This document shows positions 19,593 to 55,051 of a stretch of 64,000 bases of DNA, one piece after another. The position numbers and the translations under genes are program-made. Location of the stretch: assembly GCA_016788705.1 (NCBI GenBank), contig JAEUSQ010000018.1:1-64000 (forward strand). The letters are read 5' to 3'. The notes under the pieces are model-generated. The model saw only the letters and a list, made by a program, of their open reading frames with translations, was not told where the DNA came from and made no database searches. The DNA comes from Bacteroidetes Order II. bacterium (GTDB lineage: Bacteria; Bacteroidota; Rhodothermia; Rhodothermales; UBA2364). The stretch's first letter is position 1. Every line of letters starts with the position of its first letter.

Positions 19593-21473
19593 ATGGAAAA
19601 CACATCTCCGATTCAGGAATTTCGTGTCAAAATGGGATTCTCCTCGACTCAAGGCGAGGAACCGCACGAAATGACTGCTTCTACGCCTTTTCGTTTGTTT
19701 CTGGCTTCTGACTTGACGCCTCATCTCATGCATGATGCCATATGGGACGGGGTAACCCGTTTGGTAAAGGTGGATAAATATACTTTTGCTGAATTGATGA
19801 TGTCTTGGAGGCCCACCATATCGCTCGAAGTTCCTAATTATTTAGACGCTTCACCCAAAACCCTGTCGCTGACATTAACTTTTGACCATATTCAAGGGTT
19901 TCAGCCAGATCGGTTGGTGGAGCAGTTGCCCTTGGTGAAGCGCTTTTTAGGTCTTAGGGATGCCTTCCTTATGGTCAAGCGAGATCAATTATCTCATCAA
20001 GCCTTTGCCGGAACAATTCAAACGCTGGGCTTTGGTCGTGAGGAAGCATTGCATTGGTCCGATCGAATCCGTTCGGTTCCCGACGAAAATGCCTTGCCTT
20101 CAACGCCGAATTCTGGTGGAGGTTTGGATAACTTGCTCAACTTGGTGGACTTAGGTGGTACGGTTACACCGCAAAAACCCGCTGGTGGAGATCCAATGGA
20201 TGCCCTTATTCGTGCATTAGCCGGTCAAAAAGCAGCTTCACCACCTAAACGTCCGATAGAAAAGGGGAAAAGTGCCTTGCAAGTAGCCCTTGAAGAGGTA
20301 GAAGGTAAGATTGCGCAACAACTGGATGTTGTGATTCATCATACAGCATATCAACAACTGGAATCGTCATGGCGCGGCTTGAAATTGTTGGTAGATCGTC
20401 TGGATTTCCGGAAAAATATCCGTTTAGAAGTGCTGTCGGTCAATAAGGAACAATTGAATACGGCATTGTATCATCAAGTCTTAATGCCTGCCTATCAGAC
20501 ACCTCCAGCAGTTCCTTTTGCAGCCTTGTTATTGGATTATACGTTTGGAGACGTGGCCATAGACCTGGATCGTCTTTCAGACATTGCAGAAACGGCTGCG
20601 AGTCTTCAAATTCCGGTAGTTGCTTCGGCGGCCACAAGACTTTGGACTGAACGTGATGCCTATGGACATCCAAGAATTCCGACCATTTTACAGCATCTAC
20701 AAAAGCCGGAATTTATGGGATGGCCCTTGTTGCGTGAACAACCTTCCTCTGGATGGATAGCGCTGGCGTTGCCACATGTGCTACTGAGAAGCCCTTATCG
20801 CTCTATGCAATTGATCGGTGGGCTGTCTTATGATGAAAAAACCCCTTCGGATGGCAGTGGACATTTGTGGGGGCGTGCGTCTTTGCCTGTTGGGGTGGGA
20901 ATGGCCCAAGGCTATATAAAGTATGCTTGGGGAACCGGATTTGTTGGGACTGGAAGCGCAGGTGAGCAACAGGATTACCCCATCCGAAAAGCCGACACCA
21001 ATAGCTCACCACTCTCCATGTGGCTAGATACGCATAAACAAGCTGAAATGACCGATGCCGGATTTACGGTTCTGGCTTCTCGGCCCAATTCGGATCGGGT
21101 GTATGTGGCTGGGGCACAAGTTTTTCAGAAAGTGGCGAATTATGTAGATCCTGATTCACGTGCGGAGGCACAACTTCATGCTTCCTTGGCCTGTAAGATG
21201 GTAACGGGTAAAATAACACAAGCCATTCTATTCGCCCAAAGTGGACTAAAATCTGGCTTGTCGTCTGAACAAATTCATGTCCAACTGGTGAGGCAACTCG
21301 AAAAGGTCTTATCCGAAGGCGGTCATGTGATTGCAGAAAACACAATAAAAGTAGAGGTAGGCGATAGTCCGCGTGTGACTGACCACTATGGAATTGGGAT
21401 TTGGATCAATTCCCCTGCCTCCATTTTGGGGGAGGAAGTGCGTATTGCACTCGGATTTGAGGTTCCAAAATAA
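19593..21473 (+). CDS. T6SS-like contractile sheath protein, TssB-TssC fusion
   Basis: 626 aa, longer than TssC (about 490) by roughly a TssB. The N-terminal part matches TssB/VipA: PFRLFLASDLTP, VTRLVKVDKYTFAELMMSW at about residues 54-72, TISLEVPN, then FDHIQGFQPDRLVEQLPLVK and FLGLRDAF at about 97-126. A Gly/Pro-rich linker (about 150-225) leads to a TssC/VipB part: LQVALEEVEGKIAQQLDVVI, HHTAYQQLESSWRGLKLLVD, IRLEVLSVNKEQL, and a C-terminal strand region IGIWINSPASILGEEVRIAL. Family knowledge: TssB and TssC normally are separate proteins that co-assemble as the contractile sheath around the Hcp tube. Here both lie in one chain, inferred from motif order. It is the first gene of the operon; a 100-bp gap precedes the next gene. 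Confidence 0.82.
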   Translation: MENTSPIQEFRVKMGFSSTQGEEPHEMTASTPFRLFLASDLTPHLMHDAIWDGVTRLVKVDKYTFAELMMSWRPTISLEVPNYLDASPKTLSLTLTFDHIQGFQPDRLVEQLPLVKRFLGLRDAFLMVKRDQLSHQAFAGTIQTLGFGREEALHWSDRIRSVPDENALPSTPNSGGGLDNLLNLVDLGGTVTPQKPAGGDPMDALIRALAGQKAASPPKRPIEKGKSALQVALEEVEGKIAQQLDVVIHHTAYQQLESSWRGLKLLVDRLDFRKNIRLEVLSVNKEQLNTALYHQVLMPAYQTPPAVPFAALLLDYTFGDVAIDLDRLSDIAETAASLQIPVVASAATRLWTERDAYGHPRIPTILQHLQKPEFMGWPLLREQPSSGWIALALPHVLLRSPYRSMQLIGGLSYDEKTPSDGSGHLWGRASLPVGVGMAQGYIKYAWGTGFVGTGSAGEQQDYPIRKADTNSSPLSMWLDTHKQAEMTDAGFTVLASRPNSDRVYVAGAQVFQKVANYVDPDSRAEAQLHASLACKMVTGKITQAILFAQSGLKSGLSSEQIHVQLVRQLEKVLSEGGHVIAENTIKVEVGDSPRVTDHYGIGIWINSPASILGEEVRIALGFEVPK

Positions 21474-21573
21474 GTAGGATAGTTTCTGTTTAATATGGTT
21501 TTGTCTTCTTGATAGCCACAGACAGGTGCTGAGCGATCATTAACCCACACACTAAACGTTATCTATTCCGCGC

Positions 21574-24500
21574 ATGCAAACAAACATTCGCGTTTCAATC
21601 CTGAAAGGGCCAATATCTGGTGATAAGGATGCCTTTCAATTTAGTCAGACCTTCAACATAGGTCGGGATGCCACGTGTCAAATCCATCTTCCCAGCCCTT
21701 TGGTGAGTCGCACACATGCAGATGTGTCGTTTGAAAATGGGCAATGGGTCTTGTATGACCGTAATAGTACGAACGGTATTTGGGTAAACGGTGCCCGTAT
21801 TGCTCGTGTTGTATTGGACACTACAAAGGAGGTGGAATTTGGTCGAAATGGTCCGTTATTGAGATTTGAGGTTGAGTCATTGGTCCGTTCTGTGGCAGAA
21901 ACGCCTATAACAACCCCAGAAGCAGGCTTGGCAACTTCCTTTTGGCAATCGTTGGGTGAGATCTCAGGAACAGCGCCCAGTTTTACAGAATCGCCCGTTC
22001 CTCAAACACCACCAGAAACGGTAGCCTCCGCTTTGGAATCTGGTTTTTTTGCTGCGTTATCAGGGGAGGTCACGCCGGATACGTCTTCTGCCAAGGTTAT
22101 GGGAGAAACATCCCCCCTTTCGGAAAAACCCTCCGTCGAGTCGGGCTTATTTACATCTGCAGACCCTTCAAACGAATCACTTTTTGCCAGCCGTCCTGAT
22201 GGGCCTGCTTTTGAAGACCTGAAAAATGTTCCCCACTTTGAGGAACCACCCACTAACGTCAGTGCTAAATCTGGATTGGAGTCGGGTTTTTTTCGTTCAT
22301 TATCGGAAATGGCTCCTGAGGTTCCTGTCACGCCGAGTTCAGCCGTCGGGTCTGATTCTTCTGGTGTAACTGGATTGGAATCGGGTTTTTTCCGTTCATT
22401 ATCGCAAATGGAAGAGGAAAGCCCATCGCTAAGCAGGGAAGCACCTGAACAGCCGGAACCAACATCAGCCGCAGAACCAACAACGGCCCCCTCATTAGGC
22501 ACAGGCTTTTTTGCTGCTTTAGCAGAGGAAGTGCCGCCAGAGGACACGCCACCTACCAGCACCGATTCTATTGTGCCGGCTTTGCCATCAGGCATTTTTC
22601 GGTCATTGTCCGAGTTGCCTCAGTCTGCCCCTGTGCCCACAGAGGACACGCCCGCTACGCCGGATGAAAACGTGGAACTGGGCTTCTCGTCTGGCATTAG
22701 TTCAGCCCTTCAAGACTTAAAAGGGTTATCTGGGAGCGTAGCGCCGGATGCACCTCAAGCCGGATTGAATACTGGTTTTTTTAAAGCGTTAGCGCATGTT
22801 GCAGGCGAGGCTCCGACATCGGCACCGCCGCAACCAGTCTCATGGGATTCGCCTGATAAGGCTGGTTGGGATACTGATGCGCCATCTCCATCCGCTGTAC
22901 CAGTCGTTACACCTTGGTCATCGGCTCCTCCTACGGATAAACCAGATTGGCTTCCTGCACAAACAGATTGGGGTAAAGAGAATACGCCGCCACACGTTGC
23001 GCCCGTTTACGAATGGAGTACTCCGGGGATGCCTGCTTCTCCTCCTGCGCCTACGGATGAACCATCTTCTGACAATCTGTTCAATCAATGGGGAACAGCG
23101 GAGGCGCCACCAGCGGGCGGATTGGAATGGGGGGCACCACCTGTTAAAGCAGGCACAGATTGGGAGATACCACAGCATCCTCAAAGTGCAGGAATGGATT
23201 GGGGTAGTGAACCCCCAGCCCGCGATAAACCAACTGCGGGTGAATGGGAAGCCGCGCAGCCATCGGCTATAGATCCTGGGTTTAGTTGGCAACCTGCGCC
23301 AAATTCTGGCCATAACGATTGGCACCCAACACCAAGTAGTGAAACACCCTTGCCTCCATCTTCGGATGCATGGTCCACGCCATCGGCCTCGGCTCCTGCA
23401 AATAATCCACCAGCCGATTGGGGTAGTGGGTCTAAGTGGGAACCATCCGCCATTGCCCCGTCGTATCAGGAAGCCTCAAAAACGCCCCCTTCTGCGCAAG
23501 GATCTGTTTCGGGCTATATGCGGAAGTTTGAATCTGGTCAAACTGCGGAAATGGGTTCGCGCACGCAGATGATGATGGCAGCATTTACGCGGATGAGTAA
23601 ACGGGATAAGCGTAAATATTACTACATCATTGGTATTGTAGCTGTTGCGTTGGTTATTGCGGCCATTTGGGCTTTTTGGAAGCACAACGAAAGCAGTTCA
23701 TTGGGGGAAGCATTGGATGCGTCGAATGTTGCTTTGACAACGCAGGATTCCTTAAATGTCGTTTTGTTTTATCAAATCAAGGAATTACAACTCAAATTCG
23801 CGAATGATTCCACCCTGAATACGAACAAAAAATTACGAGACGAAACAGCCAGAAAGATTATTGAAATGCAACAGGCCTATTCCGAAAAAATGCGTGCAAG
23901 ACCTCAATATAGGGCTGTGGTGAATTTGGCGAATTCAGGCAATGCAAGTGGAAATGTGGATAAATTGATCTATGACATTACGCGCCTATTTGGTGAAAAC
24001 GAAATGGTAATGCCTGCCGGATATGTTGAAAAAGTGAAACAGTATATCAAATATTGGCAGAGTAGTTCACGGTATGTAAATGCCTTGCGAACAGCGCAAG
24101 AAAATGGGTATGTGGAACCTATTGTAGCCAGTTTCATGAAGCGCGGAGTACCCCCACAGTTTTTTTATTTGGGCATGCAAGAAAGTAATTTTAATACCAA
24201 AATTGTGGGACCTCCCACCCGCTATGGGCATGCAAAAGGGATGTGGCAATTTATTCCAGCAACAGGCACACGGTATGGGTTGAAAATTGGTCCGTTGAAG
24301 GATGTAGGGGTGTATGACCCTGAAGACGAAAGGCACGACCACGTAAAAGCAGGAGAAGCGGCAGCTGGTTATATTGCCGATATTTATAAGACGGATGCAC
24401 AAGCTTCTGGACTGTGTGTTATGGCTTCGTACAACTGGGGAGAAGGAAATGTCATCAAACGAATCAGGGCCATGCCTAATAATCCTCGCGATCGGAATTT

Positions 24501-24765
24501 CTGGAATATGTACACCCAGACTTGGATGCCCGAAGAGACCAAAAATTACGTGTTTTATATTACCGCAGCAGCAGTTATTGGCGAAAACCCTCGCTTGTTT
24601 GGGTTTAATTTCGACAACCCACTGGCAGCGGCCATACAAAAGGTTGGTAGTGGGCAGTACGTAATGCCAGGAGGCGGCAGCCCTGCTTATTCAGATTTAC
24701 CACCCATGACTTTAGCGATGGATAGTGAACGGGAGCAATTGTTTAAATTCCGGACGTTCTGGTGA
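21574..24765 (+). CDS. FHA domain - disordered repeats - TM - lytic transglycosylase chimera
   Basis: 1063 aa with four regions. (1) FHA domain, residues about 25-100: FNIGRDATCQIHLPSPLVSR, then DRNSTNGIWVNGARI, a phosphothreonine reader. (2) Residues about 117-405: about nine copies of a short motif of the form SGFFRSLSE or TGFFAALAE, spaced 28-40 residues. (3) Residues about 420-640: Pro-rich with many acidic-Trp pairs (DWG, EWG, DWE). (4) A membrane segment at about 684-705 (YYIIGIVAVALVIAAIWAFW), then a periplasmic SLT domain with catalytic Glu870 in MQESNFNTKI, GHAKGMWQFIPATGTRYGL and ASYNWGEGNV. Inferred role: couples cytoplasmic phospho-signalling to local opening of peptidoglycan for assembly of the secretion apparatus. 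It lies 36 bp before the phosphatase gene. Confidence 0.88.
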   Translation: MQTNIRVSILKGPISGDKDAFQFSQTFNIGRDATCQIHLPSPLVSRTHADVSFENGQWVLYDRNSTNGIWVNGARIARVVLDTTKEVEFGRNGPLLRFEVESLVRSVAETPITTPEAGLATSFWQSLGEISGTAPSFTESPVPQTPPETVASALESGFFAALSGEVTPDTSSAKVMGETSPLSEKPSVESGLFTSADPSNESLFASRPDGPAFEDLKNVPHFEEPPTNVSAKSGLESGFFRSLSEMAPEVPVTPSSAVGSDSSGVTGLESGFFRSLSQMEEESPSLSREAPEQPEPTSAAEPTTAPSLGTGFFAALAEEVPPEDTPPTSTDSIVPALPSGIFRSLSELPQSAPVPTEDTPATPDENVELGFSSGISSALQDLKGLSGSVAPDAPQAGLNTGFFKALAHVAGEAPTSAPPQPVSWDSPDKAGWDTDAPSPSAVPVVTPWSSAPPTDKPDWLPAQTDWGKENTPPHVAPVYEWSTPGMPASPPAPTDEPSSDNLFNQWGTAEAPPAGGLEWGAPPVKAGTDWEIPQHPQSAGMDWGSEPPARDKPTAGEWEAAQPSAIDPGFSWQPAPNSGHNDWHPTPSSETPLPPSSDAWSTPSASAPANNPPADWGSGSKWEPSAIAPSYQEASKTPPSAQGSVSGYMRKFESGQTAEMGSRTQMMMAAFTRMSKRDKRKYYYIIGIVAVALVIAAIWAFWKHNESSSLGEALDASNVALTTQDSLNVVLFYQIKELQLKFANDSTLNTNKKLRDETARKIIEMQQAYSEKMRARPQYRAVVNLANSGNASGNVDKLIYDITRLFGENEMVMPAGYVEKVKQYIKYWQSSSRYVNALRTAQENGYVEPIVASFMKRGVPPQFFYLGMQESNFNTKIVGPPTRYGHAKGMWQFIPATGTRYGLKIGPLKDVGVYDPEDERHDHVKAGEAAAGYIADIYKTDAQASGLCVMASYNWGEGNVIKRIRAMPNNPRDRNFWNMYTQTWMPEETKNYVFYITAAAVIGENPRLFGFNFDNPLAAAIQKVGSGQYVMPGGGSPAYSDLPPMTLAMDSEREQLFKFRTFW

Positions 24766-24801
24766 GTCGGAAGCCCTATTTCTTCAGTATTCCATAACCA
24801 A

Positions 24802-26427
24802 ATGGCACAAAAACAAATGCCTCACCTGCTACAATTGGGTGAAAAAACCGATGTCGGCCGGGTTCGTACCGAAAACCAAGATGCTTGCGGGCATTTTGTG
24901 GGAATGCCACAGGACGATAAACCCGCAGTCCACCTGTATGTTGTGGCCGATGGTATGGGCGGTCATGCCGATGGCAGGATTGCGAGTAGCACGGCAGTTA
25001 GTACAATTGGCGAGGCTTATTTTTCTCGTCGTGTTGGCTCGGTACTCACTCGTTTAGAACACGCTTTTCAGGAAGCCAACCTCAATATCCACAAACTGTT
25101 GAAAGATTTGCCCGGTGGACAAATCATGGGGACTACTTGTACAGCTTTATTGGTAGAGGGAGATCGGGTTTTTGTTGCGCATGTTGGGGATAGCCGTTTA
25201 TATCGGATTCGTCCGGATAAAGCAGAGCAAATCTCGGAAGACCATACCATGATTTCTGCGATGGTAAAAAAAGGAATTCTGACCCCACAAGAGGCCGAAC
25301 GCCATCCACAAAGATCCATGTTGGAACGCGCTTTGGGGCCAGAGCCGCATGTAGAGGTGGATACCTTCGAGATAGACCGATTACATCTGAATGATGTATA
25401 TGTGCTTTGCAGTGATGGTCTCGGAGATGTGCATTTGCCAGAGATATCCGAAATTGTCCAGGCAATGCCCCCGCAAGAAGCGGCAGAGAAAATGGTGGTT
25501 CTTGCAAACGAACGAGGGGGGTTGGATAACTCGACTGTACAGGTGATTCGGGTGGCGCCATCCGATAAGCCCATTGAATATGTGACCTCAACCGCCTCTT
25601 TTGATGCCCAGCGGCACTACCAAAAGGCACATCCAACCGTTGCAACGGGTGTCTGGAACGCATTAGAACAACCGGAAGTGTGGCGAAACGACCGTGGACA
25701 TGCCGTCTTACCTCCACCGCCAGAAGCCAAAGACCGCCCAAAGTGGCTGATTCCATTGATTTCTGGTTTGGTTATGTTGATTGTGGTTGGGGCCGTTTGG
25801 TTCAACTTAGATTTACTGAACCGCTCTAAATCAGCTTCGGTAGCGTTACAAAATGAGCCTTATAATGAAAACGCTTATTCAAATACAAACCCGGTAACAG
25901 AACCGGAAACACCAAAAGCGGCTTATGGGACCCAAGACAATGTGGCTCCTTTAATATCTGATAATCCTCTGAGTAATGGATCCAAGCCATCAGCACTTCC
26001 GGGAATCACACCGCCAATAACTAGGGATAGCAAACCAGAGGCGGCAAGAATTACAACCAAACCAAAAGAAAATCCCGTTTCGAACAAGCCCGATCCTTTC
26101 AAGCCGGAGACAGAAAAGCCGCAAGAACAAGGAAAAGATGGTGCAAAGTTGGCGAGTGGATTGGCCGATGCGTGGCAAAATCTTCAGGCAGGAAATCACC
26201 AAGCGGCTGTGAGTCGGTTTATTGCGTTAGAATCTGAATTCGGGAAAACCCCTGAATATCGGGAAGAACGAAGCAAAGCGGCAAAAAAATTGATGTCGTT
26301 AGGAGATGGTAAACGGGCAACGCCGGCAACCGCCTTGGATTTGTACCGAAAGTCTCAACAACTCTTGGATAGCGAAACAATCCAAAGCCGAATTACGGAA
26401 ATTCAAAAAATGGAAACCAATAATTAA
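24802..26427 (+). CDS. PP2C-type Ser/Thr phosphatase with membrane anchor (TagG/PppA-like)
   Basis: 541 aa. Phosphatase domain, residues about 10-255: GRVRTENQDACG, VVADGMGGHADG with metal ligand Asp50, GTTCTALLVEGDRVFVAHVG followed by DSRLYRIR, LCSDGLGDV, and GLDNSTVQVIRV. A membrane helix (LIPLISGLVMLIVVGAVWF) lies at about 316-334. Beyond it are a Pro/Asn-rich linker and a helical C-terminal domain (SGLADAWQNLQAGNHQAAVS, ATALDLYRKSQQLLDSETIQ) predicted outside the inner membrane. Family knowledge: in T6SS clusters PppA removes phosphate from threonines of Fha and so switches secretion off. Membrane-anchored versions with an extra helical periplasmic part are less usual. It is followed by the kinase gene after 8 bp. 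Confidence 0.9.
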   Translation: MAQKQMPHLLQLGEKTDVGRVRTENQDACGHFVGMPQDDKPAVHLYVVADGMGGHADGRIASSTAVSTIGEAYFSRRVGSVLTRLEHAFQEANLNIHKLLKDLPGGQIMGTTCTALLVEGDRVFVAHVGDSRLYRIRPDKAEQISEDHTMISAMVKKGILTPQEAERHPQRSMLERALGPEPHVEVDTFEIDRLHLNDVYVLCSDGLGDVHLPEISEIVQAMPPQEAAEKMVVLANERGGLDNSTVQVIRVAPSDKPIEYVTSTASFDAQRHYQKAHPTVATGVWNALEQPEVWRNDRGHAVLPPPPEAKDRPKWLIPLISGLVMLIVVGAVWFNLDLLNRSKSASVALQNEPYNENAYSNTNPVTEPETPKAAYGTQDNVAPLISDNPLSNGSKPSALPGITPPITRDSKPEAARITTKPKENPVSNKPDPFKPETEKPQEQGKDGAKLASGLADAWQNLQAGNHQAAVSRFIALESEFGKTPEYREERSKAAKKLMSLGDGKRATPATALDLYRKSQQLLDSETIQSRITEIQKMETNN

Positions 26428-26435
26428 TCAACATC

Positions 26436-28025
26436 ATGGTAGGTCAGTACATTGATATTTATCGGGTTACGCAAAAACTTGGCCAGGGAGGCATGGGGCA
26501 GGTCTGGAAAGCGATAGACACCCAACTTGATCGGACGGTTGCACTTAAGGTAATGAACGTGCAAGACCCCATGTTTTTGCAACGCTTCCGGGCAGAGGCG
26601 AAAGCCTTGGCCATGTTAGACCATCCCAATATTGTACGTGTTTTTGGAATGCGTGAAACGCCTATTGGCATGGTTATCATTATGGAGTTTGTGGAAGGAA
26701 AAGATTGGTCGGACCTGATTTCCCAGGGCAAGTACAACACGCCAGAAGATGTGGCCAATATTTCCAGTCAGTTACTGAGTGCGTTGGAATATGCCCACTC
26801 GAAAGCCATTATTCACCGGGATATCAAGCCGAGCAATATTATGATCATGGCCGATGGAACGGTTAAAGTGACCGATTTTGGCCTTGCAAAGCTTATTGAT
26901 CCACAAGCAACCATTGCTGGAAATCCTTTGACCCAAGCCGGTCAAGCCGTTGGTAGTTTATACTATATGTCTCCTGAGCAGGTAAAAGGGTTGGATTCGG
27001 TGGATCAGCGCACTGACATCTATTCTACAGGGATTACCATGTACGAGGCTTTGGCTGGACGCCCACCTTTCGAGGATGTAACGGCTACCTCGCCCTATGT
27101 TATCCAGAAAAAGATTGTGGATGGCGATGTTCCCGCTATTACTTCGGCGGCTCCGGGTATTCCGGCCGACCTTGCCAAAGTGATTAATAGGGCCATTCAG
27201 GTACGTCCCGATAGACGGTATTCGAGCGCAGCAGATATGCGTCTTGGATTGCAACAATTGGCAACAGGTAAGCAGTCTTCATCTGTCCCGCCTGCTTCTT
27301 CCAGTAAAAAAACGGTACTTCCACCTAAAAGTGTAACAACCCGCCCAACAAATCCCAATTGGATCATGTTCGGTGGTATCGCAGCGGTGGTGGTTTTGGG
27401 CTTTGTAGCAGTATGGTTTTTTGTCCTAAAGCCACAGCCCAAGCCCGGCCCCCAACCGCAGCAAAACATCACACAAAATGATCCCTTACCAAATTCCAAT
27501 ACAAGCCTACAACCAAGCCAGATAGATAATCCTACCGTGCCCCACGTGAACAATACACCTGCCTCCACGAACAATACAAGTGATACACCTGTTTTGACTA
27601 CGCCACCACCAAAGAACAACACCCCAGCCCGTGATCGGATTCAGCAAGGAGTACAGACCATTCGTGAAAACGTGCAAAACCGAGAACCCATTATTACGCG
27701 GCCAACCCAACCACAAACCAAGCCCAATAATGTCAATAACAATAGCCAAACAACTCCTCCTGTCACCGAAAAACCAAAAGAAGACCCAAAGCCTGAGCCT
27801 CCAGCGGCAGAAGGTTCGTTTATGGTAACAGTAGTGGGCCCGAATGGTGAACCGCTTCCGGCGACCATTTCAACCGATCTGGGTTCTGGTTATGGTGCTC
27901 GCAAGAGGTTTACAGGAAAACCTGGGGTCTATTCGGTTTCGGTAAAAGGCCCTGATGGCACCACCAAAAATACTTCTGTTAAGGTGGTGGCGGGGACGAC
28001 AACCCCTGTAACTGTCCGTTTCTAA
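26436..28025 (+). CDS. Membrane Ser/Thr protein kinase (PpkA-like)
   Basis: 529 aa. Hanks-type kinase at residues about 7-275: glycine loop LGQGGMGQVW, Lys38 in VALKV, catalytic Asp129 in HRDIKPSNIM, Asp147 in TDFGLAKL, and LYYMSPEQVKG with DIYSTGITMYEALAGRPPF. A membrane segment (WIMFGGIAAVVVLGFVAVWF) lies at about 307-327. The outer part is Pro/Asn/Thr-rich and ends in a small beta-sandwich-like domain (GSFMVTVVGPNGEPLPATIS, VYSVSVKGPDGTTKN). Family knowledge: PpkA phosphorylates the FHA protein to trigger T6SS assembly. With the neighbouring phosphatase and two FHA proteins it forms a complete writer/eraser/reader set. The extracytoplasmic domain may sense envelope state. Confidence 0.92.
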   Translation: MVGQYIDIYRVTQKLGQGGMGQVWKAIDTQLDRTVALKVMNVQDPMFLQRFRAEAKALAMLDHPNIVRVFGMRETPIGMVIIMEFVEGKDWSDLISQGKYNTPEDVANISSQLLSALEYAHSKAIIHRDIKPSNIMIMADGTVKVTDFGLAKLIDPQATIAGNPLTQAGQAVGSLYYMSPEQVKGLDSVDQRTDIYSTGITMYEALAGRPPFEDVTATSPYVIQKKIVDGDVPAITSAAPGIPADLAKVINRAIQVRPDRRYSSAADMRLGLQQLATGKQSSSVPPASSSKKTVLPPKSVTTRPTNPNWIMFGGIAAVVVLGFVAVWFFVLKPQPKPGPQPQQNITQNDPLPNSNTSLQPSQIDNPTVPHVNNTPASTNNTSDTPVLTTPPPKNNTPARDRIQQGVQTIRENVQNREPIITRPTQPQTKPNNVNNNSQTTPPVTEKPKEDPKPEPPAAEGSFMVTVVGPNGEPLPATISTDLGSGYGARKRFTGKPGVYSVSVKGPDGTTKNTSVKVVAGTTTPVTVRF

Positions 28026-28053
28026 ACTTTAACCTTTCAATCAAAATCGTATC

Positions 28054-29175: not shown

Positions 29176-29202
29176 GTTTTCTCCTCTAAATAATGCCTTC
29201 TC

Positions 29203-30510: not shown

Positions 30511-30528
30511 TCTAAACCCTGAAATACA

Positions 30529-31707: not shown

Positions 31708-31824
31708 AAAAGAATGCCCTTTATAAGGTTGCGAAGGTCGTACATAAGTGGTACATTCCAAGAATTCTTTTAATAAAGATATTGCCCTTACTCGGTCTTT
31801 AACCTTTGCCGATCTCATCCAGAC

Positions 31825-33075
31825 ATGTTACTCAAAATCATTGTAAGTCACTCTGTTCGGGATGATTTTTCGTCCGACTACCTCTTTGATGAAGGACCCG
31901 TAACCATTGGTCGTCTTCCAGAAAACAAAGTGGTTTTACCGGATCGTGAATTGATTGTGGGGCGACATCATGCTGTTATCTACCTCGAAGAAGCCTTTGC
32001 ATGGATTGTGGACGAGTCCAGTAAGAATTTTACGTTCTTAAATGGAGAAAAACTCGAACACGGAAAGAAGTACCAACTTCGGGACCAAGACCACCTGGAA
32101 ATTGGCAAATACCAATTAAGACTATTGGATCTTACGCCAAAAGATGAACCGGACAGAACTCCTGAAGCCGAAGGGCAAACAGCCGTCCAGCCTGCATATA
32201 ATCCTTTTACAGACTTGGTTCGTGGATTAACCGATGTGCTTCAGCAGATCAAAGCCTCCTATGTACAGGCCGATCCAGGGACACGTTTGATAGATTTGGA
32301 AAATGCATTCCACCGAGGGCTGGGGGCGCTTGCCACCGATGAAATAGCCCTTAAAATGGTGGATGCCATTCGCCCCAAAGCCGAGTCCTCGCCTGTACAG
32401 GTATCCGCTCTTTCGGCAGAGCCAGAAAAGCTACAAGGTGTTGCCCCTTTGGAGGTGCCAGGGTTTGTTCCTTACGCTGGGATTGATGTCCAAAATAAAA
32501 CGGAGTGGGAACGGGCGATTGGAGGAATTTATAGTACTGGGCAGGACGGGTTAATTTTAAAACGCATGGCCGTGGTGGATGATGTGATGTTGCGCATTGT
32601 AGAGAAACTGATTAAAATTCCGGCACATTTTAGGCTGGAGTTTTTGGGCCATTCCTTCATCCCGCATGCTTCTGGTTTTCCGTTCCATACGGCAACGGTC
32701 GAGCAATATAAAGCCTTTTTGTATGATATTCATGTGCCTTACGAGGTCTTGCGTGCACGTTTATCGGCTTTAGAACAGATCGCAGACGCGGTGCTTTACC
32801 ATGAAATTGCCTTGCTCGAAGGCTATAAGCAGGCGGTTCAATCCGGCGTTTTACGAATCTTGGATCAATTAAATCCGGAATACATAAAAAATGTTGCAGA
32901 GAAAGAAGGCCAAGATCTGTACACCGTTGGCATGTTGAGTCACGCAAAGTGGCTAAAATTGGTACAACAGGCGCACTATGAACTGGTTCGGGAGGACAAA
33001 GGAGTGGTTGAGAAAACCATTTTTAGGCCCGGTTTTGTGAAAGCCTATCTGGCCAAAATAGAGTCGGTTAAATAG
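31825..33075 (+). CDS. T6SS-associated FHA domain protein (TagH/Fha-like)
   Basis: 416 aa, cytoplasmic. FHA domain at residues about 20-100: GPVTIGRLPENKVVLPDREL, VGRHHAVIYLEEAFAWIVDE, then KNFTFLNGEKL. After a short linker there is a helical region resembling the C-terminal domain of TagH (NPFTDLVRGLTDVLQQIKAS, LENAFHRGLGALATDEIALK) and a longer helical tail (about 230-410) containing YSTGQDGLILKRMAVVDDVM and LLEGYKQAVQSGVLRILDQL. Family knowledge: TagH-type proteins read threonine phosphorylation made by PpkA and promote assembly of the membrane complex. A second FHA reader exists at 21574-24765. It is separated from the previous gene by 117 bp, so a further promoter is possible, and is followed by tssJ after 39 bp. 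Confidence 0.85.
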   Translation: MLLKIIVSHSVRDDFSSDYLFDEGPVTIGRLPENKVVLPDRELIVGRHHAVIYLEEAFAWIVDESSKNFTFLNGEKLEHGKKYQLRDQDHLEIGKYQLRLLDLTPKDEPDRTPEAEGQTAVQPAYNPFTDLVRGLTDVLQQIKASYVQADPGTRLIDLENAFHRGLGALATDEIALKMVDAIRPKAESSPVQVSALSAEPEKLQGVAPLEVPGFVPYAGIDVQNKTEWERAIGGIYSTGQDGLILKRMAVVDDVMLRIVEKLIKIPAHFRLEFLGHSFIPHASGFPFHTATVEQYKAFLYDIHVPYEVLRARLSALEQIADAVLYHEIALLEGYKQAVQSGVLRILDQLNPEYIKNVAEKEGQDLYTVGMLSHAKWLKLVQQAHYELVREDKGVVEKTIFRPGFVKAYLAKIESVK

Positions 33076-33114
33076 TATTTGGTTTTGTTCTTGCATACTT
33101 TAAGGGAGAGTTAG

Positions 33115-33618
33115 ATGAAACGTTACTTTATGACCCAAACGGTTCTTTTGTTAACCCTCTTGGCGGGGGCTGTTTTATTACCAGGCTGTTCATTGTTTAA
33201 AAAGAAAAAGGCGCCGCAAACGGTTGTTACTGCACCCGTAGAAACAAGACGGTCGGTAGAACTAACCGTTAAAGCCGATGCAACCTTGAATGGCGGAAAC
33301 CGCGTTAGGGTTGTAATCTATCAACTTCAGCGTAAGGAATTGTTCATGGCTTCATCCCGACAGGCATTTTGGCTAAAAAAAGAAACCTTATTGCCAGATA
33401 TTGCGGGAGATCCAAATCAAATTCTTAGCTTTGAAATTGATCCCAATGTGTCAAAAAACCATAAGGTGTTTTTGTACGAAAACACCAAGTATATTGGGGT
33501 TGCGGTTGATTTTTTCCGGCCTGATGGTAACTTATGGCGTACTGTAACCGAAATAAATCCAAATAAAAACAGTATGCTTCAGGTTACTGTCCAAGGAAGT
33601 GCTGTTTCAATTAAGTAA
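33115..33618 (+). CDS. tssJ: T6SS outer-membrane lipoprotein TssJ
   Basis: 167 aa, the family length. Lipobox LLPGC with lipid-bearing Cys25, then a basic stretch. The mature beta-sandwich has the TssJ pattern: VELTVKADATLNGGNRVRVV, IYQLQRKELFMASSRQAFW, LSFEIDPNVSKNHKVFLYEN, KYIGVAVDFFRPDGNLWRTV. Family knowledge: TssJ anchors the TssL-TssM complex to the outer membrane. Its presence, with tssK, tssL and tssM downstream in canonical order, is the strongest evidence that this locus is T6SS-related rather than a phage tail or an extracellular injection system. Confidence 0.92.
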   Translation: MKRYFMTQTVLLLTLLAGAVLLPGCSLFKKKKAPQTVVTAPVETRRSVELTVKADATLNGGNRVRVVIYQLQRKELFMASSRQAFWLKKETLLPDIAGDPNQILSFEIDPNVSKNHKVFLYENTKYIGVAVDFFRPDGNLWRTVTEINPNKNSMLQVTVQGSAVSIK

Positions 33619-33689
33619 ATACCCGAAACCCACGTTTAGACTCCTCATGAAAGGCTGTTCTCGGATGGCCTAAGACCCACACCGATTGT

Positions 33690-35042
33690 ATGGCAAGACC
33701 CCAAAAAGTAGTTTGGTCGGAAGGAATGGCCCTCGACCCACACCACTTCCAACAGTGGGACCGTTTTTCTCAAGCCAATGTTGTCTTTCGTCAGAGAATG
33801 CTACAGCGTCATGCTTGGGGAATTCTGACCTTGATGATTGATGAAGAAGCGCTGTTAAATGGTCAGTTTAGCTTGACTCAGGCCAGTGGCATTATGCCAG
33901 ATGGTCTTGTATTTGATTTACCAGAAACCGACCGCGCACCCGATGCGAGACCCATACAAGGTGCTTTTGACCCTACAAAAGACCGTTTGGCGGTATTTTT
34001 GGCGGTTCCTGCTGAACGGGTAGAGGGGCGAAATACGTTGTTGCCGGATGTCCCCCTTAACCGAACAACGCGGTTTGTGACGACCGAAATTATGGTTCGG
34101 GATGATAACACAGGAATTGAAGATCGTCCCATTCAGGTTGCAAGGGCCAATTTTCAGTTGGTTTTTGAAGGGGAAAGTGTGAATGATCTTAGCACCATCA
34201 AAATTGCTGAGGTCTTACGTACGAGAACTGGAACCTATGAGTTAAACCCTCAATTCATTCCACCATGCCTGTCTTTGGTCTCATCCAAAGCTTTAGAAAG
34301 CATCGCACGCCGCACGATGGAACTCTTGGTGGCAAAGCGTCAGGCTTTAATGGACAAACATGCGGCCTATGGTCGTGGCGAATTGGTGGCGGCAGATGTA
34401 ACGACCATGCTGTTTTTGGAATCCATCAATGGTTCTATTCCCGAAATCAATCACAATTTTTCGGTCATACAAAGCCATCCAGAAGCCTTCTTTCTTACGT
34501 TGCTACGCTTGTCGGGTTATCTGACCACTTATTCCACTGCTTTTTCATACAACGATTTTCCTGCGTATGACCATAGTGACCTCACTGCTTGTTTTCATAC
34601 GCTGTTTAACCAGTTCCGGACCTTGTTGGGGGATGTGGTATTCTCGAAAGAATATGAGCGGATAGACCTGATCCGGAAAGGCGAATCCATTTATCTGGCA
34701 ACCTTCGATGAACGCCATCTACCCGAAAATGTGGAATTGTATTTGGTGGCAACGGGGCAAGTGGCATCCGACCGAATGCGGTCTTCTTTCCCAAATGACA
34801 TCCGGATTGCTTCTCCGGCCATGATCGAACCCGTCTTAAAAGGCTTTGTCCGTGCATTGGAAGTACACTATGTTATGAGCCTCCCAAAGGGATTGCCAGT
34901 ACGGCCCGATGCGTATTATTTCAAACTAACGAAATCGGGACCGTTCTGGGACGACATTCGGGCAAAAAAAGCCTTGGTCCTTTTTGTACCAGCCACGTTA
35001 AAAATGTTGGATTTAGAGCTTATCGCCCTGAATCGTTCTTGA
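33690..35042 (+). CDS. tssK: T6SS baseplate-membrane connector TssK
   Basis: 450 aa, the family length. The N-terminus has the near-invariant TssK signature VVWSEGMALDPHHFQQWDRF. The middle contains ASGIMPDGLVFDLPE and LNRTTRFVTTEIMVRDDN, and the C-terminal receptor-like part has LFNQFRTLLGDVVF and RSSFPNDIRIASPAMIEPVL. Family knowledge: TssK trimers link the baseplate (TssE-F-G) to TssL/TssM. Here the linker is present although no tssE, tssF or tssG gene is visible in the window, so its baseplate partner must be encoded elsewhere or be replaced. It lies 71 bp after tssJ. Confidence 0.93.
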   Translation: MARPQKVVWSEGMALDPHHFQQWDRFSQANVVFRQRMLQRHAWGILTLMIDEEALLNGQFSLTQASGIMPDGLVFDLPETDRAPDARPIQGAFDPTKDRLAVFLAVPAERVEGRNTLLPDVPLNRTTRFVTTEIMVRDDNTGIEDRPIQVARANFQLVFEGESVNDLSTIKIAEVLRTRTGTYELNPQFIPPCLSLVSSKALESIARRTMELLVAKRQALMDKHAAYGRGELVAADVTTMLFLESINGSIPEINHNFSVIQSHPEAFFLTLLRLSGYLTTYSTAFSYNDFPAYDHSDLTACFHTLFNQFRTLLGDVVFSKEYERIDLIRKGESIYLATFDERHLPENVELYLVATGQVASDRMRSSFPNDIRIASPAMIEPVLKGFVRALEVHYVMSLPKGLPVRPDAYYFKLTKSGPFWDDIRAKKALVLFVPATLKMLDLELIALNRS

Positions 35043-35147
35043 TAAATCCGAACATTGTCGGATCTCTATTCATTCACTTTGGGGCGGTGATGGGCAAGTA
35101 CCCAAACCGATCTTCCCATTTATACGTTCATTTCAACGTCGAGAATC

Positions 35148-35813
35148 ATGAGTGCTAAACGTCCGCGCCTTTCTAAGTTCTGCACGGAGTTTTTGATGTT
35201 TGCCTTGCACATCCGTCGAACCCAGAACCCCGGTCATCCCGGAACGCTTCGTGAAAGTGTAAAATTGGCGCTTCAAAAATTAGAAAACACCTGTAAACAA
35301 GCAGGGGTTGGTTTTCAAGATTTTCAACAGGCCAAATTTGCCTTGGTGGCATTTTTGGATGAGTCTGTGAGTATTCCGGCTTGGCCTTATAACGATGCCT
35401 GGAAACGAAACCCGCTTCAATTCGAGTTGTATGGCCGTTACGATGCTGGCGAGCAATTTTTTGAACGAATCGCCTTTCTACGTCAGGATGTTCGGGCCAA
35501 TCTGGAGGCATTGGAAGTGTTTTATCTATGTCTTACGCTTGGATTTCGGGGAAAGTATGAGATTGTGGGGCGCGACCAATTGGCGGCCTTGCAGGATCAG
35601 CTATACCGAGATTTGCAGCCCTTTGTTCAGGGTGCATCGGCACAGTTGGCGCCCAGTGGATATCCCCGTGCCAAGGTAATGGCAGAAGCAAGACGGGAAA
35701 TCCCAGTCTGGGTCATTTTTGCCATTGCTGGTAGTATCATGATTTTGTTTTATATCATCATGAGTTTTCTGATTTCCAGTGCTGCCGCCAATGTGATGTC
35801 GGGAGTTCAATAA
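35148..35813 (+). CDS. tssL: T6SS inner-membrane protein TssL (DotU family)
   Basis: 221 aa. The cytoplasmic hook domain has the DotU features: QAKFALVAFLDESVSIPAWP, WKRNPLQFELYGRYDAGEQF, FERIAFL, VFYLCLTLGFRGKYEIVGRD. A single C-terminal membrane segment (VWVIFAIAGSIMILFYIIM) lies at about residues 185-205. There is no C-terminal peptidoglycan-binding OmpA domain, as in the short TssL form. Family knowledge: TssL and TssM form the inner-membrane platform. The gene is followed by tssM after 35 bp. Confidence 0.93.
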   Translation: MSAKRPRLSKFCTEFLMFALHIRRTQNPGHPGTLRESVKLALQKLENTCKQAGVGFQDFQQAKFALVAFLDESVSIPAWPYNDAWKRNPLQFELYGRYDAGEQFFERIAFLRQDVRANLEALEVFYLCLTLGFRGKYEIVGRDQLAALQDQLYRDLQPFVQGASAQLAPSGYPRAKVMAEARREIPVWVIFAIAGSIMILFYIIMSFLISSAAANVMSGVQ

Positions 35814-35848
35814 CTGCCTTAAGCAAACCACTAAGCATTTCTAAAGTC

Positions 35849-38800
35849 ATGCTCAACGCACTTAAAAACGAATTCTTTATTGGTGGTGCCACCTACATCA
35901 TCTTTGCAGCCGGGGTTTTTTATCTCGGAAGCCTATTTGAAATTGACATGACCATGCGAATCTTGATTTCGCTGGTTATCTTGTTGCTGGTGGCAATAGT
36001 GATGATGTACCGAAAAATGAAAGCCAATCGGGATGCCGCCAAATTGGAAGCAGGCATGAAAGCCCAAGCCGATGCTGCACTCTTCGGTCAGGTATCTGAT
36101 AAGCGATTAGAAATCGAGGAGTTACAGAAAAAGTTTGTGGCTGCCATCGAAACCCTTAAACAATCAAAATTGGGCAAAGGCGGGAAAGGCAATCAGGCGC
36201 TTTATTCACTCCCTTGGTACATGCTCATCGGGCCGCCCGCTGCTGGAAAAACCACCCTGATCCAGCAATCGGGGCTTCAGTTTCCTCTCGAATCCAGTAG
36301 GGTTCGTGGGGTTGGCGGAACAAGAGATTGCGATTGGTTCTTTTCTACCTCGGCCATATTCTTAGACACTGCCGGGCGATATACTACCGAGCAATCGGAC
36401 GAGCCAGAATGGTTGGGTTTTTTGGATCTACTCAAAAAATATCGCAAAAAAAAGCCATTAAATGGGGTTATTGTGTCCTTGGCAGTTACAGACCTAATGG
36501 GCCGAACCGAAGAAGTTGAACAACATGCAGCGACTATTCGCCGCCGTTTGGATGAATTGATCAGCCGTCTTGGGGTACATTTTCCGGTCTATTTGGTCTT
36601 TACCAAAAGCGATTTGGTGGAAGGATGTGTGGAGTTTTTTAGTGATCTCAATGCCCGTGAAGTAGAGCAGATTTGGGGGCATACCTTGGATGAAACGGAG
36701 CAAGCGAGCAAAGAACCAGGTCAGATTTTCAGGTCCACCTATAACCGGATGCTGAAAACATTAGAAGATTTACGGTTAAATCGCTTAAATACCAACTTGA
36801 AACGCGAAGATCGTCGGAAAGTGTATAGCTTCCCAGACGAAATGACCGGCTTAAAAGATCCTATCACGGCGTTTGTTAATCGCTTGTTTCAGTATAATCC
36901 GTTCAATGAAAATCCAATATTTAGGGGCTATTATTTTACAAGTGGAACCCAAGAAGGGACTCCGATTGATCGGGTGATGCAGGCATTGGCCAATCAGTAT
37001 AGTTTGCCACAAACAGGTGGTGAAATGCCGATTCAGCGGGAGACCAAAAGTTACTTTATCAAAGACATTTTTAACCATGTCATCATTCCGGATCAACGGA
37101 TGGCCGTGCATACAAAGGCCGAGAAGAAATTACAGAACAAACTCCAGATAGGCGCCATTGCATTGTCCGTACTCACCATGCTGTTGTTTTTCTGGGGAGT
37201 GGGTTGTGGTTATTCCAAGTCAAGTCAGACGTTGGCCAGCTTGGACGATGCGATACTTAAAGCGAAATCGGTTGCATGGTCGGGGCCTGAAAAAACAATT
37301 CCCAATTTGCAGATATTAGACAACCTTCGGCTCCGTATCCTTGAAGCTGAAGAAGAAAGTTTTTTTTGGACAATGGGAATGACTCGTGGGGAAAGTGTAG
37401 CAGAACAAGCACGTTTGCTATTCTTTCGTAAATTCCGGCCCTTGGTTGAGCAACAATTTTACCGAAATATGGAATCTGGGTTGCGCGAATATGTGGCTTC
37501 CGGCCAAGACCCCATTGGAAAGATGGAAGAACAGTTGGGAGCCTATATCTTAATGGGGCCAGACGTGAACTTTGCCCAAGGAGCTGAACCTCCAACCAAA
37601 GCCGAAGGGGTTAAGCATTTGCAGGTGTTTTTGTCTTATGCGGCAGACCTCCAGTTCAATAACCCTTCGGGAACGATGCGGCTCTCCAAAGAAATTCAGA
37701 CGATGGTGAAAGAGCAGGTCAAGCTTTTTGGCGAAGTGGTACGACAAAATGAACCGCTACGGTTCCGTACAGACCAAATACTCATCCGGCAGTCAAGAGA
37801 ATTGCTTCGTAAGAACCTTTCGGCAAAATCAATTTATCATAGCATTAAACGGCAGATCATTAACCAAAGGCCCCGATTAGGAAGTATTGGCTTGCCAGAA
37901 TTATTGGGCCCCATTTCTTCTGGTTACATGTTTGGAAGTGTCCGGGTCAACGGCTTTTTCACTCGCTCTGCATGGGATACCTTGGTGGTCCGCGAATTTA
38001 GAAAGCGAAGCGAAAACCCTGTAGCAGGTAATTGGATTATCGGTCCGCTTTCCAAAGCCCAGCTACCAAGTAACCTAACCAATCCGGTAGAATATTTACG
38101 CTCCTTGGTTCGGTTCTATTTTGAGGATTATGCCCGAACTTGGGTTACGTTTGTTCAAGGGGTTACCTACGACCGCTCTGGCGTCTCTGGCAGCAATCCG
38201 CTTTCGGTGGCTTTGCGTCTGAACCAACTTTCCGCAGCGGGTTCATCGCCCTTCCAAGCCCTTGTGGACTCGGTGTCTTCACAAAATCGTTTGTCTTTCA
38301 AACAAGAAAAAGGCGGCAATATTGTGACGAATACCTGGGACAGCATTATGGGCAACGAGCGTTCCGATATTCAGATGGACCAATCGGGATTGGATGTGGG
38401 GCAATCTATCAAGGCCATTCATGCGCTGGCGACCTTGCCACCTCCGGGAGGGAAAGGAACCAATGGTGGGCTTAAAACGCTTTTGGATGCCTATTTTGCC
38501 GTGAGCAAAGAAGTAGAAAGAATGGCAAGTGGTCAACAAGCCCCCATGGCAGAACAGTCTATTAATAGTGCGAAAGATGTTGCAGAACGGCTATCCGGGC
38601 TTTTTGACGCAGGAACAGGGGCGAGAATAAAGGCCTTGCTTCAAGCCCCATTAGAGGATATTTCCTCTGGGGTGGTGGTGATCCAACAGGAACAGGTGGC
38701 GCAAACTTTTTCCGCGTCTGTTGGTAGCGAACTGGCTTCTGTGCAGAGAAGATATCCATTTAGTGAAAGCGCCAGTGCAGATTTATCGGCGGATGAATTT

Positions 38801-39370
38801 GGTGACTTGTTTAAGCCTGGTGGAAAATTAGATCAGTTTTTTGACCAAAACAAGGCGATGATAGATAACCCTAATAGTGGTGCTAAAGGGGCAGAATTAA
38901 AAGCTTTTCGAGACAGGGTGCGGGAAGTGCAGAAAAGTTTCTTTGCAGGTGGGAGTTTGTCTGCCCAATTCGACATGGTTCCGGATCGTCCAGAGCCCTC
39001 TAATGTTGTGGCCGAGGTTGATCTGAAAATGGATGCCACTTTGCACAATAATCGTACATCGGAAGGATTTTCTTTTGAGTCCCCCAAACGGATTGTCTGG
39101 CCCAGTGATGGGGGCGAAGCGTATATCGAAATACGAGATGTAAATGGAAATAGCGCTCGTGTTGCAGCACCAAGGGGGGCCTTTGCGATGTTCCGCTTGC
39201 TTGAAAAAGGCTCGTTAAAAGCCCTATCTTCGGATGAATTTGTAGTGGAATGGAGTATCAAACTCGGTGGTAAATCTGTCCGCTTGCGCTATACCATTCA
39301 AGCGGCTGGGCTGAAAAATCCCATTGCGGGTCTTAATTTGTTGCATGATATGAAAATGCCTGAACTCTAA
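35849..39370 (+). CDS. tssM: T6SS inner-membrane channel protein TssM (IcmF family)
   Basis: 1173 aa. Two membrane segments at the N-terminus (TYIIFAAGVFYLGSLFEI and ILISLVILLLVAIVMMY), an NTPase-like cytoplasmic domain with Walker A GPPAAGKT at 128-135, FLDTAGRYTTEQSDEP, and the VYLVFTKSDLVEG segment, then a third membrane helix near residues 430-448. The large periplasmic part ends in the C2-like IcmF domain (RIVWPSDGGEAYIEIRDVNG, FAMFRLLEKGSLKALSSDEF). Family knowledge: TssM spans the inner membrane and reaches TssJ at the outer membrane. Intact Walker A residues suggest nucleotide binding is retained. It is the last gene of the operon; a strong terminator follows 20 bp later. Confidence 0.95.
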   Translation: MLNALKNEFFIGGATYIIFAAGVFYLGSLFEIDMTMRILISLVILLLVAIVMMYRKMKANRDAAKLEAGMKAQADAALFGQVSDKRLEIEELQKKFVAAIETLKQSKLGKGGKGNQALYSLPWYMLIGPPAAGKTTLIQQSGLQFPLESSRVRGVGGTRDCDWFFSTSAIFLDTAGRYTTEQSDEPEWLGFLDLLKKYRKKKPLNGVIVSLAVTDLMGRTEEVEQHAATIRRRLDELISRLGVHFPVYLVFTKSDLVEGCVEFFSDLNAREVEQIWGHTLDETEQASKEPGQIFRSTYNRMLKTLEDLRLNRLNTNLKREDRRKVYSFPDEMTGLKDPITAFVNRLFQYNPFNENPIFRGYYFTSGTQEGTPIDRVMQALANQYSLPQTGGEMPIQRETKSYFIKDIFNHVIIPDQRMAVHTKAEKKLQNKLQIGAIALSVLTMLLFFWGVGCGYSKSSQTLASLDDAILKAKSVAWSGPEKTIPNLQILDNLRLRILEAEEESFFWTMGMTRGESVAEQARLLFFRKFRPLVEQQFYRNMESGLREYVASGQDPIGKMEEQLGAYILMGPDVNFAQGAEPPTKAEGVKHLQVFLSYAADLQFNNPSGTMRLSKEIQTMVKEQVKLFGEVVRQNEPLRFRTDQILIRQSRELLRKNLSAKSIYHSIKRQIINQRPRLGSIGLPELLGPISSGYMFGSVRVNGFFTRSAWDTLVVREFRKRSENPVAGNWIIGPLSKAQLPSNLTNPVEYLRSLVRFYFEDYARTWVTFVQGVTYDRSGVSGSNPLSVALRLNQLSAAGSSPFQALVDSVSSQNRLSFKQEKGGNIVTNTWDSIMGNERSDIQMDQSGLDVGQSIKAIHALATLPPPGGKGTNGGLKTLLDAYFAVSKEVERMASGQQAPMAEQSINSAKDVAERLSGLFDAGTGARIKALLQAPLEDISSGVVVIQQEQVAQTFSASVGSELASVQRRYPFSESASADLSADEFGDLFKPGGKLDQFFDQNKAMIDNPNSGAKGAELKAFRDRVREVQKSFFAGGSLSAQFDMVPDRPEPSNVVAEVDLKMDATLHNNRTSEGFSFESPKRIVWPSDGGEAYIEIRDVNGNSARVAAPRGAFAMFRLLEKGSLKALSSDEFVVEWSIKLGGKSVRLRYTIQAAGLKNPIAGLNLLHDMKMPEL

Positions 39371-54874: not shown

Positions 54875-55051
54875 GTTCTGGGATTGGGGGACGGATAGGT
54901 CAAAAAATGGTAACACCAAACACCGTTCTTATCAAACCATTGGCATGGGTTTCTGAACCATTCAGGTAGATTAAGGACTTTTCCTATTGATATTCAAAAC
55001 CTATACCGATAAACTGCAAGGGAAATCATGCTCCACCCTCGTAGTTTTGTC

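What the first reader, a model, noticed from the sequence alone, without database searches (positions are those of the whole stretch)
19593..39370. T6SS-like locus with TssJKLM but no tube, spike, baseplate or ClpV genes
Twelve same-strand genes encode a TssBC-type sheath, TssJ, TssK, TssL, TssM, phospho-signalling proteins and envelope proteins. Hcp, VgrG, PAAR, ClpV, TssA, TssE, TssF and TssG are all missing between 18.9 and 39.5 kb. Described Bacteroidota T6SS (subtype iii) lacks TssJLM, so a TssJLM-containing system in a Bacteroidota-like genome is unusual. Either the missing parts lie elsewhere or this is a reduced or repurposed machine.
Basis: partly seen in the sequence, partly recalled or inferred. 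Interest (0 to 1): 0.78.

Follow-up and report, generated by a model that had tools for sequence, protein, structure and literature searches.

The report
Complete T6SS with single-chain sheath paralogue
The apparent 'half' secretion machine is one half of an ordinary complete type VI secretion system whose other genes lie on another contig, but its sheath-like gene is a fused TssB-TssC protein that exists beside the normal sheath genes, recurs in several phyla, and seems not to have been described.

Summary
In detail: twelve + strand genes at 19593-39370 encode a TssB/TssC-type protein, FHA, kinase and phosphatase proteins, envelope proteins and TssJ-K-L-M, with no tube, spike, TssA/E/F/G or ClpV. 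The 'reduced or repurposed machine' reading is refuted. The same genome carries TagF-TssA-TssB-TssC-Hcp-TssE-F-G-ClpV-VgrG-PAAR on contig C12, and in many relatives of the order Rhodothermales both halves form one locus. TssM and TssK group with other TssJLM-bearing (T6SS-i-like) systems, in a distinct clade shared with three further genomes of the same GTDB phylum. So this is a complete T6SS-i-like machine, split in this genus. The oddity is the 'sheath' gene. It is a single-chain fusion of a diverged TssB and a diverged TssC, present in addition to canonical tssB and tssC. It is under purifying selection, is conserved in 18 or more Rhodothermales genomes, and keeps a copy of TssC's ClpV-recognition-like helix in its linker. 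Fused paralogues form two deep families, also in Acidobacteriota, Myxococcota and Pseudomonadota. Most likely it is a specialised minor sheath subunit tied to the FHA/kinase module. That role is inferred, not shown. I found no earlier description in the open-access library.

The parts
19593..21470 (+). Single-chain TssB-TssC fusion paralogue, 626 aa: TssB-like ~30-160; linker ~165-225 with the ClpV-recognition-like helix LDNLLNLVD at ~178-186; TssC-like ~225-626
   Evidence: VipA 4.1e-14, VipB 6.4e-49; 18 homologues; helix motif; model and fold
21574..24765 (+). FHA - long low-complexity linker - TM (684-702) - SLT lytic transglycosylase
   Evidence: same FHA-TM-SLT layout downstream of the fusion in nine relatives
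24802..26427 (+). PP2C-type phosphatase with TM (PppA-like)
26436..28025 (+). Ser/Thr protein kinase with TM (PpkA-like)
28054..29175 (+). CsgG/LpoB-like protein, putative lipoprotein
29203..30510 (+). TPR protein, putative envelope lipoprotein
   Evidence: N-terminal sequence
30529..31707 (+). Putative outer-membrane beta-barrel protein with signal peptide-like N-terminus
   Evidence: weak PF13557; N-terminal sequence
31825..33075 (+). TagH-like FHA protein
   Evidence: TIGR03354 4.7e-21, below its cut-off
33115..33618 (+). TssJ lipoprotein
   Evidence: TIGR03352, over cut-off
33690..35042 (+). TssK
   Evidence: 3e-105; tree
35148..35813 (+). TssL (DotU)
   Evidence: 4.2e-52
35849..39370 (+). 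TssM (IcmF)
   Evidence: 2.8e-81; tree

Best explanation
SHOWN: the locus is the membrane-complex, TssK and phospho-signalling half of one complete TssJLM-bearing T6SS. Its tube, sheath, baseplate, ClpV and spike genes (TagF-TssA-B-C-Hcp-E-F-G-ClpV-VgrG-PAAR) are at a second place in the genome, contig C12. The split is real, not an assembly break: both halves lie inside contigs, and in the sister species G002 too. SHOWN: the sheath-like gene of the window is an additional single-chain TssB-TssC paralogue, not the main sheath. INFERRED, most likely mechanism: the canonical TssB/TssC pair builds the bulk of the contractile sheath. The fusion folds as one complete sheath protomer, as phage and eCIS sheath proteins do, and is built in as a specialised minor subunit, probably at an end or a regulated position. 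Its linker carries a TssC-type helix that may recruit ClpV. It works with the adjacent FHA/kinase/phosphatase module, which may control assembly, and with the FHA-TM-SLT protein, which would open peptidoglycan for the membrane complex.
For: Complete set on C12; only two sheath loci in the genome and one TssM. Whole system in one locus in many relatives, with the order TagH-J-K-L-M-TagF-A-B-C-Hcp-E-F-G-ClpV-VgrG-PAAR-(RHS-pentapeptide-DUF2169)-fusion-FHA/SLT-PP2C-STK-CsgG-TPR. TssK and TssM trees; TssC tree. Fusion: conserved in 18 or more Rhodothermales genomes; dN/dS about 0.11 between G000 and G001; monophyletic 98* with branching broadly like that of canonical TssC. Linker motif aligned in all 18, matching the TssC N-terminal helix better than shuffles (p<0.05) in 16 of 18; that helix binds ClpV in E. 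coli and Vibrio (PMC5048182). AF2 model pLDDT 85.9, pTM 0.84: TssC half Z about 30 to solved TssC; whole model 29-614 Z about 16-21 to single-chain sheath proteins. Fused paralogues beside normal sheath genes in Acidobacteriota, Myxococcota and Pseudomonadota, in two deep families.
Against: No experiment shows the fusion in a sheath or bound to ClpV. The AF2 alignment contained canonical TssB and TssC rows, so the model is not independent of that fold; a shallow fusion-only alignment gave pLDDT 52. Pfam's C-terminal TssC domain (PF18945) is not detected in the fusion, and a stretch of about 13 residues (FEDSPELIQS) that the compared TssC sequences have is missing. It evolves much faster than TssC (34-38% against 64-70% identity to relatives), which also fits a regulator released from lattice constraints. 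In two genomes of genus g13 (G047, G101) and in some Acidobacteriota it lies away from the T6SS core.
Confidence: 0.55

Rival explanations
1. The fusion is a soluble regulator or adaptor (ClpV recruiter or decoy, effector-loading or kinase-pathway partner) that uses a sheath fold but is never built into the sheath.
For: Conserved ClpV-helix-like linker; genes beside DUF2169 or EagR/DcrB adaptors and FHA/kinases; family B fusions end before the C-terminal part of TssC; a Rhodobacteraceae protein carries many DLDDVLAGL repeats between a TssB domain and the fusion.
Against: The Rhodothermales fusion keeps TssB N-terminal and TssC C-terminal strands in sequence and model and folds like a whole single-chain protomer; a TssB domain fused to it in one Rhodobacteraceae genome hints at contact with the sheath.
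Confidence: 0.3
2. The fusion is the main or only sheath of a second, independent contractile machine that uses the window's TssJLM.
For: The window holds no other sheath gene; the fold is a complete single-chain sheath protomer.
Against: The genome has one TssM locus and one canonical sheath locus. The full tube, baseplate and ClpV set sits with canonical tssBC, and relatives hold all of it in one locus with both sheath types.
Confidence: 0.05
3. One reading: a reduced or repurposed T6SS without tube, spike, baseplate and ClpV (new subtype).
For: Those genes are absent between 18.9 and 39.5 kb.
Against: All of them are on contig C12 and in the same locus in relatives.
Confidence: 0.02
4. The fusion is a decaying duplicate (pseudogene in the making).
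For: Fast divergence relative to TssC.
Against: dN/dS about 0.06-0.11 (the lower value is near synonymous saturation), intact in 18 or more genomes, and deep families across phyla.
Confidence: 0.03

Closest known systems
T6SS subtype i (canonical TssJLM systems of Pseudomonadota and others)
   Same: TssJ, L, M membrane complex, TssK, TssA, separate TssB/TssC, Hcp, TssE/F/G, ClpV, VgrG, PAAR, TagF and TagH with kinase/phosphatase control
   Different: Own clade of Rhodothermales and other genomes of the phylum; split in two loci in this genus; extra fused TssB-TssC gene; FHA-TM-SLT protein
T6SS subtype iii of Bacteroidota (TssNQOPR membrane complex, PMC10781749)
   Same: Occurs in the same wide GTDB phylum
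   Different: Here the membrane complex is TssJLM
TssB/TssC (VipA/VipB) heterodimeric sheath
   Same: Both domains, same order, sheath fold, ClpV-recognition-like helix
   Different: One polypeptide; present in addition to the normal pair; below NCBIfam cut-offs; PF18945 not detected; faster evolution
Single-chain sheath proteins of phages, pyocins, AFP/PVC
   Same: One chain covering the whole protomer; structural Z about 16-21 over residues 29-614
   Different: Sequence is clearly of TssB/TssC descent
Second TssC copies in Rhizobiales T6SS (e.g. Mesorhizobium locus L062)
   Same: A second sheath-type gene beside the first
   Different: Not fused to a TssB; elsewhere in the tree

Membership tests
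T6SS-i-like system | TssJ, TssL and TssM membrane complex with TssK | tested here: met
T6SS-i-like system | Hcp, VgrG, PAAR, TssA, TssB, TssC, TssE, TssF, TssG and ClpV encoded in the genome | tested here: met
   contig C12
T6SS-i-like system | TssK, TssM and TssC branch with other TssJLM systems | tested here: met
   no typed T6SS-ii or -iii rows were in the trees, so the formal subtype is not proven
T6SS-iii | TssNQOPR membrane complex in place of TssJLM | tested here: not met
   TssJLM present; presence of TssNQOPR itself was not searched
Reduced T6SS-like machine | Genome lacks tube, spike, baseplate and ClpV genes | tested here: not met
TssB/TssC sheath proteins (the fusion) | Homology to both VipA and VipB families | tested here: met
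TssB/TssC sheath proteins (the fusion) | Two separate polypeptides reaching NCBIfam equivalog cut-offs | tested here: not met
   53.6 against 97.25 and 180.4 against 271.5 bits; one ORF
TssB/TssC sheath proteins (the fusion) | C-terminal TssC domain (PF18945) with handshake strands | tested here: inconclusive
   no Pfam match; strands present in alignment and model
TssB/TssC sheath proteins (the fusion) | ClpV-recognition helix | tested here: inconclusive
   sequence resemblance in the linker; binding not testable here
TssB/TssC sheath proteins (the fusion) | Assembles in a contractile sheath | not testable with these tools
   needs biochemistry or cryo-EM

The most novel reading that the evidence does not exclude
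T6SSs of several phyla carry a previously unrecognised accessory component: a single-chain TssB-TssC paralogue, in two ancient families. It is built into the sheath as a dedicated minor subunit (terminal ring or ClpV/phospho-regulated element), so that T6SS sheaths in these lineages are hetero-polymers of two sheath types.
Probability: 0.35. Interest if true: 0.75.

Novelty: new variant of a known kind. Interest (0 to 1): 0.5.

Why it matters
The locus itself shows that TssJLM-type T6SSs are established in Rhodothermales and in a few other genomes of the GTDB phylum Bacteroidota, as a lineage of their own, which matters for ideas on how T6SS-i and T6SS-iii membrane complexes arose. The fused sheath paralogue matters more. 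It sits beside the normal sheath genes in many genomes across phyla, has been kept by selection, and may explain how sheath ends, length or ClpV recycling are controlled, questions that could be tested directly in cultured Roseithermus or myxobacteria.

Tried and rejected
A wide fusion alignment (A1) had no stretch conserved enough for a collection scan; a closer set (A2) worked. Most non-Rhodothermales hits of that scan that span both domains are ordinary adjacent tssB and tssC genes, so matches were accepted as fusions only as single ORFs without stops. A structure from five fusion sequences was poor and was repeated with canonical TssB/TssC rows. Fusion restricted to Rhodothermales: first believed, then rejected after Holophagae, Rhodobacterales, Contendobacter, Myxococcota and Acidobacteriota cases appeared. 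Assembly break as cause of the split: rejected, both halves lie inside contigs in G000 and G002. Literature searches for fused or paralogous TssB/TssC found no description, nor one of T6SS in Rhodothermales; only open-access papers were searched. PADLOC kinase hits (PD-T4-6) reflect the kinase domain only.

Full report
Observation. The twelve + strand ORFs at 19593-39370 are present as described, and family searches confirm TssJ, TssK, TssL, TssM, a TagH-like FHA protein, PP2C, a Ser/Thr kinase, an FHA-SLT protein, CsgG/TPR/outer-membrane-like envelope proteins and a protein with both VipA and VipB domains. Hcp, VgrG, PAAR, ClpV, TssA, TssE, TssF and TssG are absent from the locus.

Where the missing genes are. 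A search of the genome with the sheath-like protein found a second sheath locus on contig C12. Reading 31.7 kb there and scanning its genes gave TagF, TssA, TssB, TssC (with PF18945), Hcp, TssE, TssF, TssG, ClpV, VgrG and PAAR, plus a PG-binding protein, HEAT and DcrB (EagR-type) proteins and an LCAT-like lipase. The genome is 99.9% complete in 66 contigs; C12 is 66.7 kb, C18 is 228 kb, and both halves lie inside their contigs. In relatives the whole set lies in one locus, e.g. G012: TagH-J-K-L-M-TagF-A-B-C-E-F-G-ClpV-VgrG-PAAR-...-fusion-FHA/SLT-PP2C-STK-CsgG-TPR; G010, G097 and Roseithermus G008 are similar. The machine is therefore complete, and only this genus (G000; G002 shown) has it split in this way; in G047 and G101 only the fusion gene stands apart from the core.

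Organism and subtype. Close relatives are 'Bacteroidetes bacterium UBA2364' (unclassified Bacteroidota Order II) and Roseithermus sacchariphilus (Rhodothermota; Rhodothermales). The published statement that Bacteroidota carry only T6SS-iii and no T6SS-i-like membrane complex rests on 1253 complete NCBI Bacteroidota genomes with Rhodothermus and Salinibacter as outgroup (PMC10781749). TssM occurs in 24 of 114 genomes of the order. Three genomes of other families in the same GTDB phylum (G235, G427, G353; names not given) have TagH-TssJ-K-L-M-TagF-A-B-C-Hcp-E-F-G-ClpV in one run. In quick trees, TssK and TssM of Rhodothermales and these three form one clade (99*) among TssJLM systems of Pseudomonadota, Myxococcota and others; canonical TssC of Rhodothermales is one clade. 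This is not a recent transfer, and not a machine outside the TssJLM kind. Typed T6SS-ii and -iii rows were not in the trees.

The fused sheath paralogue. The window's 'sheath' is one ORF: a TssB-like part, a linker, and a TssC-like part. It is distinct from the canonical tssB and tssC on C12 and scores below NCBIfam's cut-offs. Eighteen Rhodothermales homologues, the window's included, align over their length. Of the 24 genomes of the order with sheath hits, 18 hold the fusion as one ORF, and one more (G020) has it in two pieces at contig ends. The rest are G046 (partial match), G064 and G081 (another T6SS type) and the fragmented G095 and G099. It diverges faster than TssC (34-38% against 64-70% identity) but under purifying selection (dN/dS 0.11 with G001; TssC 0.011, TssM 0.025).

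The linker is low-complexity except for an LDxLLxMVD helix at the same aligned place in all 18. [quoted passage not shown] A profile from canonical TssC scores these linkers above shuffles at p<0.05 in 16 of 18, and the best hit is this helix in all but one of those. In E. coli and Vibrio that TssC helix is the ClpV-binding element (PMC5048182). A linker match is not proof of binding.

Structure. A model with 47 aligned rows has mean pLDDT 85.9 and pTM 0.84. Its TssC half matches solved TssC chains at Z about 27-30, and residues 29-614 as a whole match single-chain sheath proteins of phages, pyocin, AFP and PVC at Z about 16-21. So the fusion looks like a complete protomer in one chain. The alignment included canonical rows, so this shows compatibility with the fold, not independent proof.

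Wider distribution. Single-ORF TssB-TssC fusions also occur in a Holophagae MAG, Contendobacter, Stagnihabitans and a Rhodobacteraceae MAG. By my reading of the match tables they occur in about 11 of 30 sheath-positive Myxococcota genomes and about 17 of 32 Acidobacteriota genomes (inspected in part). A tree of the TssC core gives two groups. Family A (27 rows, 100*) holds all Rhodothermales fusions plus Myxococcota and Acidobacteriota ones. Family B (12 rows, 99*) holds fusions of Rhodobacterales, Contendobacter, Acidobacteriota and Myxococcota that end before TssC's C-terminal part; it groups with one of the canonical TssC clades. One further Myxococcales protein (770 aa) falls among canonical TssC rows instead. 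Branches are long and the method was quick, so deeper order is unsure. In a Rhodobacteraceae MAG a TssB domain, many DLDDVLAGL repeats and the fusion form one 1291-aa ORF. Genes next to fusions are often FHA proteins or kinases, or DUF2169/EagR adaptors, but in some Acidobacteriota the fusion stands alone among housekeeping genes.

Mechanism. Shown: completeness, split, conservation, selection, fold compatibility, motif. Inferred: the fusion is a minor, specialised sheath subunit, perhaps at an end, perhaps ClpV- and phospho-regulated. A soluble ClpV or kinase-pathway adaptor is the main rival (0.3). No description of such fusions was found in the open-access literature; subscription papers were not searchable.

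Verdict. The finding as written (a machine without tube, spike and motor) is explained away; the system is a complete T6SS. What remains of interest is the recurrent single-chain sheath paralogue: new variant of a known kind, interest 0.5.

Noticed in passing
window 57379-64000: Long CRISPR array: 102 copies of ATTTCAATACCCGAAGGTGCGATTAAAAG (100 exact), mean spacing 65 bp, running to the window's end; cas genes were not looked for outside the window.
   Followed up: partly
window 21574-24765: FHA - ~590-aa low-complexity linker with repeated [ES]GFFxxLS-type motifs - TM - SLT lytic transglycosylase; nine relatives have FHA-TM-SLT at 533-625 aa. A cytoplasmic phosphothreonine reader joined to a periplasmic peptidoglycan cutter.
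   Followed up: partly
L243:14726-18598 (- strand, Rhodobacteraceae MAG): One 1291-aa ORF with a TssB domain over its NCBIfam cut-off, about a dozen DLDDVLAGL-type repeats, then a TssB'-TssC' fusion.
   Followed up: partly
L203, L204, L205 (G235, G427, G353): Complete T6SS-i-like loci with TssJLM in non-Rhodothermales genomes of the same GTDB phylum; organism names not available here.
   Followed up: partly
L207, L216 (G081, G064): Another T6SS type in two genomes of the order, with TssK and TssM in a different clade (1368-aa TssM-like protein) and no fusion.
   Followed up: no
L206, L210, L213-L215 (G407, G306, G268, G289, G364): Other genomes of the GTDB phylum with separate tssB/tssC but no PF06761 match; some hold diverged TssM-like proteins.
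   Followed up: no
L031:1715-7746 (contig C12): Likely T6SS cargo and adaptor genes after PAAR: PG-binding, HEAT, DcrB/EagR-type and LCAT-like lipase proteins.
   Followed up: no
window 55028-57136: 702-aa ORF beside the CRISPR array with no Pfam (E<=0.001) or PADLOC match.
   Followed up: no
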